Source: Chloroflexota bacterium (GTDB lineage Bacteria > Chloroflexota > UBA11872). Taken from it: a stretch of 64,000 bases of DNA. The translations under genes and the position numbers were made by a program. The stretch covers positions 72,304 to 136,303 of the forward strand of contig JAPPNP010000026.1 of assembly GCA_028873795.1 (NCBI GenBank), given 5' to 3'. The notes beneath the pieces were generated by a model, which saw only the letters and a program-made list of their open reading frames with translations, had not been told where the DNA came from and made no database searches. This document shows, piece after piece, positions 11,221 through 15,459 of the stretch; the first letter of the stretch is position 1, and each line of letters begins with the position of its first letter.

Positions 11221-12446
11221 CGGAGACCCTGGATATGGAGATGGGAATTGTCAGGAGTGTTTTCTGGAGGAGAATAACGAAAGGCGATTTCTTCAATATT
11301 GAACGAGCTCTTGATGCTGGGCCGTCTGGAGGCGGTGGGCAGCTATACATCGATATTCCGTTGGGCGGTGGTGTGTCGCTGGAAGAGTTCGGCGAATTCT
11401 TTAGCGGAGCTCCACTGGCTCTAGACGACTCAAGGTGGCATCCGTTTCAGCTACAGGTGTATTCGGCGTCACATCCCTTGGTAGTCGCTCCTCTCACTCT
11501 GACCCCTAGGCGGGGCCAGAATCGTCGCTACCGAATCGCAAACCAAAACAGACAGGCAACGGGTGGACAGCGGCATCCTGCGTGGTCCGAAGATCGAGGA
11601 TTTCCGAAAGCTCCTGACGACGTCCGGTCTCCGTCCGATCCGCGAATGCCGGATTTGTCCTACCTGAAGGTGTTTGTTGCGCGTACTGATAGCGGGATCT
11701 TCCTTGCTGGCTTCACAGATTCCAGCTCAATACCGCAAGCTTGGCCACGCAGAGCTGGGCTTGAGGTCTTGTTCGACCCCAACGACGGTGCAAGAGCCGA
11801 CGGCGTCTTCCACATTCCGGCCGACATCCGGTTTAGCGCTGAACAACTCGCTGAAGGAAGCGCTTCACCGTCCGGAGCGACAAGGACTGCTACTGGAGAC
11901 ACTCTTGGGCAGTCTAGGGTTATCCGCCGAACTGAAGTGAGTAGTCTCCGACGTCGAGTGGGTACGGCGTCTGCACCTAGACCTCTGGATCCTCGTGCGG
12001 ATCTGGACGAAGCTGTAACCATTCAGGCTCCTCGTGCTTCAGAGGCGGAGGATTGGGTTGAATGTCGACTAAAGGAGCTCAATAGTAGTCGTGAGTTGTG
12101 GCGAATTGGAAACACCAGTCTGGAGACAATTCCCCTGGAAGATGGATACCTACCGGGTGCCGATCTTATTGTTCTCGATCCTAGAAGCGAGAGTCCAGAT
12201 CGCTTTGTCGAAGTCAAGTCAGCGAGTGGATCACTCCCGGCATCAATACGTCTCACGGCCACGGAGCTGCAGAGGGCCAAGCTATGTGCCTCAGATGGAG
12301 TTCCATACGACATCTGGGTAGTGGTCTTTGACAATACCGGCGTAACAGGATCTGTCATCGCTGGCTTCGAACGCGAGGCGGTCATGCTTACGATTGATGA
12401 CTTGGCGGGTTTGGAAATCAGGATCGCTACAAAGTCAGCAGTCTAA
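11217..12446 (+). CDS. Restriction-endonuclease-like protein with C-terminal PD-(D/E)XK domain
   Basis: 409 residues. The C-terminal third has a PD-(D/E)XK nuclease core like that of DUF3883/NO VEIN-type domains: PGADLIVLDP with Asp316, then RFVEVKSASG with Glu332 and Lys334, followed by a helix LTATELQRAKL that matches the usual Q/E-x-x-x-A pattern. The N-terminal 230 residues, beginning GIVRSVFWRRITKGDFF and including GGGGQLYIDIPLGGG, are not a domain I can name. The ATGA overlap with the MT-A70 gene indicates coupling. The most likely role is the cleavage subunit of a restriction-modification system. Its stop overlaps the convergent LON-domain gene by four bases, the right edge of the island. 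Confidence 0.7.
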   Translation: MTETLDMEMGIVRSVFWRRITKGDFFNIERALDAGPSGGGGQLYIDIPLGGGVSLEEFGEFFSGAPLALDDSRWHPFQLQVYSASHPLVVAPLTLTPRRGQNRRYRIANQNRQATGGQRHPAWSEDRGFPKAPDDVRSPSDPRMPDLSYLKVFVARTDSGIFLAGFTDSSSIPQAWPRRAGLEVLFDPNDGARADGVFHIPADIRFSAEQLAEGSASPSGATRTATGDTLGQSRVIRRTEVSSLRRRVGTASAPRPLDPRADLDEAVTIQAPRASEAEDWVECRLKELNSSRELWRIGNTSLETIPLEDGYLPGADLIVLDPRSESPDRFVEVKSASGSLPASIRLTATELQRAKLCASDGVPYDIWVVVFDNTGVTGSVIAGFEREAVMLTIDDLAGLEIRIATKSAV

Positions 12447-13075
12447 TTCAGGCGCGAGTTTTGCCGCGCGTCCAGGAGGTCGTTGAGGTCGCGCAGCAGC
12501 CGCTGCATGAGCTTGGCCTCGCGGGCCAGCAGCTCCTCGACGGTCGGCGACTCGAGCAGGTTTTGGCGCGTGCTGGCCGTGGCTGGCAGGGCGGAGGCGG
12601 TGAAGTAGGCGAACCGCTCCGGATCGCGCGGCAGCTCCTCGTGCGTCCCGAAGGCGCCTTGCAGCTCCAGCGTGAGCTGCAGCGCCTTGCGGTAGTCCTC
12701 GCGCACGCGTGCCGCCTGGGCCGCCAGCTCGCGCGGGTCCGTCACCGGCATCGCGTCCAACGTCACTGACGCCGTCAGGTGCGGCTCCTGCTGCTCGAGG
12801 GCGTCGATGCGGAAGCGCTCCTCGCCCACCGCCTCGATGTTCATGCGGCCGTCGGGCAGCGTCTCATGGCTGGTGATGCGCGCCGTGGTGCCCACGCCGT
12901 GCGGCTCCGCCGGCCCGCCAACCTCCTCGCCGGAGCGGATCAGCGCCACGCCGAACGGCCGCTCCTCGTCGATGCAGGCGCGAATCATCACCCGATACCG
13001 CGGCTCGAAGATATGCAGCGGCAGCCGCATGTGCGGAAACAACACCGTATGAAGCGGAAACAGGTCCAGCTGCAT
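12443..13075 (-). CDS. Stand-alone LON substrate-binding domain protein
   Basis: 210 residues matching the N-terminal (LAN/PUA-like) domain of Lon protease with no ATPase or protease domain. MQLDLFPLHTVLFPHMRLPL and HIFEPRYRVMI are the characteristic opening, followed by FGVALIRSGEEVGG. A helical tail (residues about 120-205) follows. Single-domain LON proteins are common in bacteria and their role is unknown. It is divergently placed to the ABC exporter genes, with 165 bases between starts. Confidence 0.85.
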   Translation of the reverse strand: MQLDLFPLHTVLFPHMRLPLHIFEPRYRVMIRACIDEERPFGVALIRSGEEVGGPAEPHGVGTTARITSHETLPDGRMNIEAVGEERFRIDALEQQEPHLTASVTLDAMPVTDPRELAAQAARVREDYRKALQLTLELQGAFGTHEELPRDPERFAYFTASALPATASTRQNLLESPTVEELLAREAKLMQRLLRDLNDLLDARQNSRLN

Positions 13076-13240: not shown

Positions 13241-14134
13241 GTGACGGACGCGCCGCCGATCGTCACGCAGTCGCTGTCGAAGTCCTATGGCAGCGTCCAG
13301 GCGCTGACCGATTTGTCGCTTTCCGTGGAACGCGGAGAGATCTTCGGCTTTCTGGGTCCCAACGGCGCCGGCAAGACGACCACGGCGCGGCTGCTGCTGG
13401 GCTTGATGCGGCCCACCAGCGGCTCGGCGCGCATCTTCGGCACCGACGTGCACGCCGAGGGTCCCACGGCCCGTCGCTCTGTGAGCTATCAGCCCAGCGC
13501 CGACGCGATGTACGAGTCCATGCGGGTGGCGGCCTATCTGCGAGCCTTCGCGCGCATGGGTGGCGTGCCCGTGCATCGCACCGACGAGCTCATCGAGCGG
13601 CTGGACCTCGACACGTCGCGCCGCATCAAGGCCCTCTCGACCGGCAACCGGCAGAAGGTGGCCATCGTCCGCGCGTTGCAGGCCGACGTGCCGCTCTATC
13701 TCCTGGACGAGCCCACCCGCGGTCTCGATCCACTGGTGCAGCAGGAGTTCGGTCGGATTCTGGCGGAGTATCGCGACGAGGGGCGCACCATCTTCCTGTC
13801 CACCCACATCCTGTCCGAAGCCGAGAGTCTCTGCGACCGCGTCGGCCTGCTGCGGGAGGGGCGGCTGGTTGCCGTGGAGCGCGTGGACGTGCTGACCGAA
13901 AGCCGGGTGCGGCGCTTCCACGCCCGCTTCGCGGGAGCCACGCCCACCGAGGTTGACCTGGAAGGCGCCACGGTGGTGTCGCGCACGGATGACACGATCA
14001 GCTTCGAAGTCAGCGGGTCCGTGGACCGGGTGATCAAGACGCTGGCCGGCTTCGAGGTCACCGACCTCACCGTCGACGAGCCGAGCCTCGAGGACGCGTT
14101 TCTGCGGTACTACGACCAGCAGGACCAGACGTGA
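13241..14134 (+). CDS. ABC transporter ATP-binding protein
   Basis: 297 residues. ATPase of an ABC-2 type exporter. Walker A GPNGAGKTT (about residues 44-52), Q-loop region YQPSADAMYESM, a somewhat degenerate signature LSTGNRQKVAI, Walker B YLLDEPTRGLDP, and switch histidine in FLSTHILSEAE are all present. The C-terminal ~80 residues after position 215 form the DUF4162-like accessory domain ending EPSLEDAFLRYY, common in drug, bacteriocin or lipid exporters. GTG start at 13241; its stop overlaps the permease start (GTGA). Confidence 0.92.
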   Translation: MTDAPPIVTQSLSKSYGSVQALTDLSLSVERGEIFGFLGPNGAGKTTTARLLLGLMRPTSGSARIFGTDVHAEGPTARRSVSYQPSADAMYESMRVAAYLRAFARMGGVPVHRTDELIERLDLDTSRRIKALSTGNRQKVAIVRALQADVPLYLLDEPTRGLDPLVQQEFGRILAEYRDEGRTIFLSTHILSEAESLCDRVGLLREGRLVAVERVDVLTESRVRRFHARFAGATPTEVDLEGATVVSRTDDTISFEVSGSVDRVIKTLAGFEVTDLTVDEPSLEDAFLRYYDQQDQT

Positions 14135-14949
14135 CGCTGCACCTGCTGCTCCACACCCTGCGCCATCGGCGCCTGGCGATTTTCTGGTTCACCGTGGGGC
14201 TGTTCATTCTCGCGCTCTTGGTCATGGCGCTCTGGCCGTCGTCGCGCGACCTGGACCTGGACGCGTTCCTCGAAACCATGCCCGATGCGGCGAAGGCGGC
14301 GTTTCTGGGCCGGGGCTTCGACAGCCCGGCCATCGAGCAAAGCGCCTTCCTCCAATACCTCGGCTCGCAGCTCACCACCTGGTTGCCGATACTGGCCGCC
14401 TACTACGGCATGTGGGCCGGCGGCGGCGCGATTGCCCGGGCCTACGGCCGCCACACGCTCGACGTCTTGCTGGCGCAGCCGATCACGCGCGAGCGGTTTC
14501 TGCTGACGCGGCTGGCGGCGGTGGCGCTAGGCGCGCTGGTGATCGTCGTCGGCGCGATGATCGGCCTGCTGCTGGGCGTAGCCGCCTGGGCCGGCGACAC
14601 GCCGATTCCCGCCGGCGACATCGTCCTGGTGCACGTGCAGCTGCTGCTCTTCGGCTTGGCTGCCGGGTCGATCGCCGCGGTCGTGGCCACGATCCTGCTG
14701 GAGCCGGGCCGCACCTACGGCGCGAGCGCGCTCATCGTGGTGGTGATGTACGTGCTGTTCCTGGTTGCCGAGGTGGTCGAACCGCTGGAGTGGCTGGGCT
14801 ATGTGTCGCTGTTTCACTACTGGCGGCCGTTGGAGCAGTTCTCCACCGGGGGATTTGCGTGGACGGAAGCGGTGGTGCTGGCGGCGGTCGCCGTCGTCGC
14901 CGCCGGGCTGGCGGTCGTACTATTTCGACGCCGGGACATCGTGACCTAG
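14131..14949 (+). CDS. ABC-2 type transporter permease
   Basis: 272 residues with six hydrophobic segments (starting at about residues 14, 88, 130, 165, 195 and 243) and an extracytoplasmic loop after the first, the ABC-2 permease layout. It overlaps the ATPase gene by four bases and is therefore its partner. The motif HTLDVLLAQPITRERFLLTRL after the second segment is the usual ABC-2 coupling region. Substrate unknown. The GTG at 14131 is the only start consistent with the first membrane segment. Confidence 0.9.
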   Translation: MTLHLLLHTLRHRRLAIFWFTVGLFILALLVMALWPSSRDLDLDAFLETMPDAAKAAFLGRGFDSPAIEQSAFLQYLGSQLTTWLPILAAYYGMWAGGGAIARAYGRHTLDVLLAQPITRERFLLTRLAAVALGALVIVVGAMIGLLLGVAAWAGDTPIPAGDIVLVHVQLLLFGLAAGSIAAVVATILLEPGRTYGASALIVVVMYVLFLVAEVVEPLEWLGYVSLFHYWRPLEQFSTGGFAWTEAVVLAAVAVVAAGLAVVLFRRRDIVT

Positions 14950-14958
14950 GACCTCGAC

Positions 14959-15459
14959 ATGCCGCGATCCCAAGGCTCGACGACGCTCGCGGTCGGCGAG
15001 CCTGCGCCGGACTTCGACGTCCACGTTGCGGGCGAGGGCCGGCGCACCGTGTTGCAGGACTTTGCCGGCCGCTGGCTCTACCTGGTGTTTCTGCGGCACG
15101 TCTGGTGACTGAGCTGCCATGGCTACATGGCGCGGCTCGAGGTCGAGCTGGACGAGTGGACCAAGCGGGACGTGACCGTCGCCTTCGTCTATGCGCAGCG
15201 ACTCAAGATCGTGGACGCCTTCGTCAAGCGTGAAGGCCTGCCGTTCCCGGTGCTGGCCGACCCCTCGCGGCGGATGGTCCGCGACTACGGCGTCTACGTC
15301 CGCATCAACTTCGAGTCGTGGAACATGGCGCGGCCCTCGGTGGTCCTCATCGATCCGGGCGGGATCGTGCGCGAAGTGTTCGTGGGGCGGAGTTCGCTGG
15401 AGTGGCCGGAAAGCAAGGACCTCTGGGCGCTGATGGAGCGGCACGAGGCGGCCGGCTAG
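14959..15459 (+). CDS. Redoxin/peroxiredoxin-like protein, candidate selenoprotein (Sec50)
   Basis: Reading from ATG 14959 through one in-frame TGA (15106-15108) to TAG at 15457-15459 gives 166 residues of continuous thioredoxin-fold sequence. The N-terminus, AVGEPAPDFDVHVAGEG, is the AhpC/TSA-Redoxin opening; after the TGA come the helix and strands with PFPVLADPSRRMVRDYGVY and PSVVLIDPGGIVREVF, all typical. The TGA falls exactly where the redox-active cysteine should be, in LVFLRHVW-U-LSC, a UxxC motif. A strong hairpin begins three bases after the TGA. Ten bases separate it from the ABC permease gene, so it is probably in that operon. Alternatives are a TGA nonsense mutation of a CxxC redoxin, or a sequencing error. 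No selA/B/C/D genes are in the window. Confidence 0.75.
15111..15138 (+). promoter_or_regulatory. SECIS-like stem-loop immediately after the in-frame TGA
   Basis: GAGCTGCCATG (15111-15121) pairs with CATGGCGCGGCTC (15126-15138) to form an 11-bp stem with a two-base bulge on the 3' side and a GCTA loop (15122-15125) whose first base is G. Bacterial SECIS elements lie inside the coding region just after UGA, with a G in the first two loop positions. The loop begins 14 bases past the TGA, at or slightly short of the usual spacing, so this is supportive rather than decisive. Confidence 0.5.

What the first reader, a model, noticed from the sequence alone, without database searches (positions are those of the whole stretch)
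14959..15459. Candidate unannotated selenoprotein: redoxin with in-frame TGA in a UxxC motif
Seen: an otherwise intact AhpC/TSA-type redoxin is interrupted by one TGA at 15106-15108, exactly at the redox-active residue (LRHVW-TGA-LSC). Upstream (49 codons) and downstream (116 codons) parts are in the same frame and are both redoxin-like, and a GC-rich hairpin starts three bases after the TGA. Known: Sec replaces Cys in UxxC motifs of several bacterial thioredoxin-fold families, and bacterial SECIS elements lie just 3' of the UGA. Inference: this is a Sec-containing oxidoreductase that standard gene callers would split or discard. It sits ten bases after an ABC exporter operon, which may be its functional context.
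Basis: partly seen in the sequence, partly recalled or inferred. Interest (0 to 1): 0.88.

Follow-up and report, generated by a model that had tools for sequence, protein, structure and literature searches.

The report
Selenocysteine redoxin beside an ABC exporter
A gene that looks broken by a stop codon in an uncultured Chloroflexota bacterium is almost certainly an intact gene for a selenium-containing redox protein, a new branch of a known kind of selenoprotein that standard gene finders would cut short.

Summary
The finding holds. ORF 14959-15459 encodes a 166-residue AhpC/TSA-fold protein, read through one TGA at 15106-15108 (U50 of a UxxC motif). The source genome (3.18 Mb MAG, 96.6% complete) has tRNA-Sec, SelA, SelB and SelD, and SelD itself carries an in-frame TGA. 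All 30 matches of the subfamily in 20 genomes (45-86% identity) keep a single in-frame TGA, with no Cys form seen. More distant thiol-disulfide redoxins of the TlpA/ResA type have TGC (Cys) at that column. Synonymous sites are unusually conserved just after the TGA (permutation p 5e-5). Two hairpins follow. The second (15133-15150, loop AGGU, 31 nt from the UGA) fits the published bacterial SECIS model; the nearer one does not fit its spacing rule. The protein lacks the peroxiredoxin PxxxTxxC motif and has a Pro at the Trx cis-Pro position, so a UxxC thiol-disulfide oxidoreductase is the best reading. It matches the SelL-related family NF040769 only below its cut-off. Linkage to the ABC-2 exporter is conserved in all six genomes of the genus and in ten loci of the sister genus. 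Verdict: a genuine selenoprotein, a new subfamily of a known kind.

The parts
14959..15459 (+). Sec-containing Prx-like redoxin, 166 aa, TGA read as Sec (U50), UxxC motif U50-L-S-C53
   Evidence: AF2 model mean pLDDT 84.3 with U50 just before helix 51-62
15106..15108 (+). in-frame TGA, Sec codon 50
   Evidence: one TGA inside all 30 subfamily matches from 20 genomes; at the same column in the 22 aligned
15115..15132 (+). hairpin 1 (7 bp, loop GCUA at 15122-15125, 13 nt after the UGA)
   Evidence: RNAalifold consensus; two pairs with changes on both sides; spacing is shorter than the 16-37 nt of the bSECIS model
15133..15150 (+). hairpin 2, likely SECIS core (7 bp, loop AGGU at 15140-15143, 31 nt after the UGA)
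   Evidence: paired in 100% of cells; GG in the loop invariant; codons 58-64 have identical third bases in all 16 genomes; fits the bSECIS model in PMC13188914
14131..14949 (+). ABC-2 type membrane permease, ends 9 bases before the redoxin
   Evidence: Pfam PF12679; linkage conserved
13241..14134 (+). ABC transporter ATP-binding protein of the same putative operon
   Evidence: Pfam PF00005; linkage conserved
12443..13075 (-). Lon substrate-binding-domain protein, divergent neighbour that stays beside the exporter genes
   Evidence: Pfam PF02190; present in window-genus loci L051 and L052 and in nine sister-genus loci

Best explanation
This is an intact selenoprotein gene. During translation the UGA at codon 50 is decoded as selenocysteine by tRNA-Sec and SelB, guided by an RNA stem-loop within the coding sequence just downstream. 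The product is a cytosolic AhpC/TSA-fold (Prx-like) thiol-disulfide oxidoreductase: Sec50 is the nucleophile of a UxxC site and Cys53 resolves the mixed selenenyl-sulfide. Shown by computation: the frame, the conserved TGA, the Sec machinery, the conserved hairpins and the fold. Inferred: actual Sec insertion, the catalytic cycle, the cytosolic place, and a functional tie to the adjacent ABC-2 exporter.
For: Conserved TGA: all 30 subfamily matches in 20 genomes, down to 45% identity and including another family of the order. tRNA-Sec with anticodon tca, 71.3 bits; SelA 499.9, SelB 295.9 and SelD 376.3 bits, all above their cut-offs; SelD has U in its active-site motif. tRNA-Sec is found in 18 of the 20 genomes that carry the gene, and the two misses are 86% and 89% complete MAGs. 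Cys (TGC) occupies the column in TlpA/ResA-like redoxins of related genomes; TGA also occurs there in other UxxC redoxins. Third positions: 88% identical in codons 51-66 against 61-65% elsewhere, permutation p 5e-5. Hairpin pairs hold in 98.6% of cells against 27-42% when slid. Full-length AhpC-TSA domain across the TGA; AF2 model and PDB matches to Prx folds, TM about 0.8. P126 aligns with the cis-Pro of TlpA-like proteins.
Against: No read, proteome or selenium-label data. No Cys version of the close subfamily was found, so the Sec/Cys pairing rests on distant homologues. Covariation is modest (two pairs, few changes), and codon bias could contribute to the synonymous conservation. Substrate and partner are unknown, and peroxidase activity is not excluded; the confidence is for the selenoprotein claim, the thiol-disulfide role alone is about 0.7.
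Confidence: 0.95

Rival explanations
1. It is a Sec-containing peroxidase: Cys53 sits where peroxiredoxins have the peroxidatic Cys, and Sec50 next to it resolves or assists.
For: C53 aligns with the C of TxxC in Bcp-type proteins; R125 aligns with the Arg before the last strands of Bcp-type proteins; the best fold matches are peroxiredoxins.
Against: The peroxiredoxin PxxxT/SxxC motif is not kept: R46 replaces P and U50 replaces T/S, invariantly. P126 matches the cis-Pro of thiol-disulfide oxidoreductases.
Confidence: 0.25
2. A pseudogene, or a Cys gene with a sequencing or assembly error at one base.
For: A single stop in one frame can always be an error.
Against: The same TGA occurs in many independent MAGs over about 50% protein divergence; the full Sec machinery is present.
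Confidence: 0.01
3. Two separate proteins: termination at the TGA and reinitiation at ATG 15127.
For: An ATG follows 18 bases after the TGA and gives a 110-aa ORF.
Against: That ATG is codon 57, which is Leu (CTG or TTG) in most relatives; both halves would lack a complete redoxin fold; it does not explain why TGA and never TAA or TAG is kept.
Confidence: 0.02
4. TGA is reassigned, or read by a near-cognate tRNA, in this lineage rather than decoded as Sec.
For: The frame is open if TGA is read as any residue.
Against: Some close relatives use TGA as the terminal stop of this very gene (L021, L025, L026, L027). The TGA sits at a Cys column and the genome has SelA, SelB, SelD and tRNA-Sec.
Confidence: 0.01

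Closest known systems
Prx-like thiol:disulfide oxidoreductase selenoproteins (PF00578, UxxC; Prx-like 1 in the GOS survey; PMC1088965, PMC2398784, PMC13188914)
   Same: AhpC/TSA domain; thioredoxin-like UxxC in place of the Prx TxxU/TxxC motif; downstream SECIS-type hairpin
   Different: Own sequence branch with the invariant RHxWU and SWNxARP motifs, found here only in Chloroflexota; direct identity to the published members was not measured
SelL-related redox protein (NCBIfam NF040769)
   Same: Best NCBIfam match, 7.7e-17, over residues 15-112
   Different: 61.5 bits, well below the cut-off of 120; the match lacks the C-terminal part
Redoxin family selenoprotein (PF08534, UxxC) in PMC13188914
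   Same: Redoxin Pfam match 7.5e-20 and UxxC
   Different: AhpC-TSA scores higher (3.7e-24); direct comparison with the listed example was not possible
Sec-peroxiredoxin (PxxxTxxU) and PrxU (NF040737)
   Same: Same fold; weak match to the PrxU model, 7.7e-9
   Different: No PxxxTxxU; Sec is three residues earlier; 35.6 bits against a cut-off of 270

Membership tests
Bacterial selenoprotein | Sec machinery (selA, selB, selC, selD) in the genome | tested here: met
Bacterial selenoprotein | In-frame UGA conserved in homologues | tested here: met
   30 of 30 subfamily matches
Bacterial selenoprotein | Cys homologues at the UGA position | tested here: met
   TGC in TlpA/ResA-like relatives only; none within the close subfamily
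[quoted passage not shown]
   hairpin 2: loop AGGU, 7 bp, 31 nt; energy was computed only for the two hairpins together, -21.6 kcal/mol
Bacterial selenoprotein | Sec shown in the protein | not testable with these tools
   needs mass spectrometry or 75Se labelling
Prx-like thiol:disulfide oxidoreductase (PF00578, UxxC) | PF00578 domain with UxxC at the active site | tested here: met
Prx-like thiol:disulfide oxidoreductase (PF00578, UxxC) | Thiol-disulfide oxidoreductase activity | not testable with these tools
   P126 at the cis-Pro position is only suggestive
SelL-related redox protein NF040769 | Score over the curated cut-off of 120 bits | tested here: not met
   61.5 bits
Peroxiredoxin | PxxxT/SxxC (or U) motif | tested here: not met
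   R46, U50, C53 invariant in the subfamily

The most novel reading that the evidence does not exclude
The selenoprotein is a dedicated redox partner of the adjacent ABC-2 exporter, acting on its cargo or on the transporter, so that export in these Chloroflexota depends on selenium.
Probability: 0.15. Interest if true: 0.55.

Novelty: new member of a known kind. Interest (0 to 1): 0.38.

Why it matters
It adds a subfamily of UxxC redoxins, Sec-only in the data searched, in a little-known order of Chloroflexota. No NCBIfam model covers it above its cut-off, so these genes are probably annotated as truncated or missing. It shows that such genes can be confirmed from MAGs by conservation of the TGA, Sec machinery and local synonymous constraint. 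The conserved link to an ABC-2 exporter is a testable lead.

Tried and rejected
Sequencing error or pseudogene: rejected by the conserved TGA. General recoding of TGA: rejected because relatives of this gene end in TGA. Extended single stem from the UGA with hairpin 1 as apex: pairs hold in 91.8% of cells against 98.6% for the two-hairpin structure, and its lower helices break in several relatives. Hairpin 1 as the SECIS core: spacing 13 nt, outside 16-37. Peroxiredoxin membership: motif not met. The plasmid collection gave only distant redoxins, at most 33% identity among those listed; the best one has Ser at the U column by eye. A sponge origin of the genomes was suggested by bin names but not established.

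Full report
Observation. The frame 14959-15456 plus stop is open over 166 codons but for one TGA at 15106-15108, codon 50. Pfam AhpC-TSA spans the TGA (3.7e-24, residues 12-139), and the part behind it still matches alone. A scan of the window for TGA codons between two coding-like stretches lists seven, and only this one has a Cys within three residues.

Sec machinery. The window lies in a 3.18 Mb assembly, 96.6% complete. It holds tRNA-Sec (71.3 bits; anticodon tca by ARAGORN), SelB, SelA and SelD, all above cut-off. SelD has an in-frame TGA of its own at its active site (GAG-U-ACK), and a second redoxin in the genome has a U-GTC motif.

Conservation. All five other genomes of the genus have the gene at 80-86% identity, ten sister-genus genomes have a copy at 60-63%, and a second group lies at 45-50%; a member of another family of the order has one at 49%. 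A profile search of 41 genomes of the class finds 30 members of the subfamily in 20 genomes, every one with a TGA inside; in the 22 that were aligned it falls at the same column. One of the 30 showed a TAG as well in the pairwise search, outside the profile match. tRNA-Sec was found in 18 of these 20 genomes; the two without it are incomplete. A scan of 84,980 species genomes returned 22 loci at 45-86% identity, all titled Chloroflexi or Chloroflexota, and two distant ones. In distant redoxins the column holds TGC in TlpA/ResA-like proteins, Thr in Bcp-like ones, and TGA in several other UxxC redoxins.

RNA signal. Third positions in codons 51-66 agree in 88% of comparable pairs, against 61% before and 65% after (16 genomes; permutation p 5e-5). 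The effect is strong in the sister genus and across both genera; within the window's genus alone another stretch (codons 106-125) is even more conserved. RNAalifold gives two adjacent 7-bp hairpins. Pairing holds in 98.6% of cells against 27-42% for slid versions; two pairs of hairpin 1 change on both sides, and hairpin 2 is nearly invariant. The published bacterial model asks for 16-37 nt from the UGA to a small loop with G in its first two positions (PMC13188914). Hairpin 2 fits: 31 nt, loop AGGU (CGGG in more distant copies). Hairpin 1 lies 13 nt away and does not. Both may matter.

Protein. The AF2 model has mean pLDDT 84.3, with residue 50 just before a helix (51-62) as in thioredoxin folds. 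The best PDB matches are peroxiredoxins, TM about 0.8. U50 lies where Bcp-type peroxiredoxins have Thr and C53 where they have the peroxidatic Cys; the Pro of PxxxT is Arg46 here. P126 lies at the cis-Pro position of TlpA-like proteins, with R125 before it. This favours a UxxC thiol-disulfide oxidoreductase, but peroxidase activity is not excluded. The N-terminus shows no evident signal peptide (by eye).

Context. ABC ATPase, ABC-2 permease and redoxin lie in a row in all six genomes of the genus, and in ten loci of the sister genus for the 45-50% group. In nine sister-genus loci the 60-63% copy lies elsewhere, behind a zinc-type alcohol dehydrogenase by eye. The tree puts the window gene with that relocated copy (99/97), although its place in the genome matches the other: the linkage is probably older than the duplication, or one copy replaced the other. 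The function of the linkage is unknown.

Known kind. The literature lists Prx-like UxxC selenoproteins from marine metagenomes (PMC1088965; PMC2398784) and a 2026 table of 119 families (PMC13188914). The nearest NCBIfam model, NF040769 (SelL-related), scores 61.5 against a cut-off of 120. I file it as a new subfamily of a known kind.

Noticed in passing
L102 (G000:C76:12500-16000), redoxin at contig 13915-14346 minus strand: Second TGA-interrupted redoxin in the same genome, motif FYRAFW-U-GTC, behind a Pro/Thr-rich stretch; the other five genomes of the genus have TGA-containing matches at similar score.
   Followed up: partly
L047 (G000:C75:178015-181941): SelD of this genome is itself a selenoprotein (GAG-U-ACK); a standard annotation would miss its N-terminal part.
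   Followed up: partly
L053-L061 against L062-L072: Genomes of the sister genus have two Sec redoxin copies: one beside the exporter and one relocated behind an alcohol dehydrogenase; the tree groups the window gene with the relocated one.
   Followed up: partly
L031, L032, L033, L036, L037: Other UxxC redoxins with TGA in more distant Chloroflexota genomes; by eye several have a hairpin with loop AGUU 25 nt after the UGA, a different SECIS spacing.
   Followed up: partly
L073 (Phycisphaerae MAG JAJDDZ010000318.1): Distant redoxin with TGA at the same column (GHW-U-RYC), probably another selenoprotein.
   Followed up: no
redoxin codons 106-125 (about window 15274-15333): Third positions are fully invariant within the window's genus in this stretch, without an obvious reason.
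   Followed up: no
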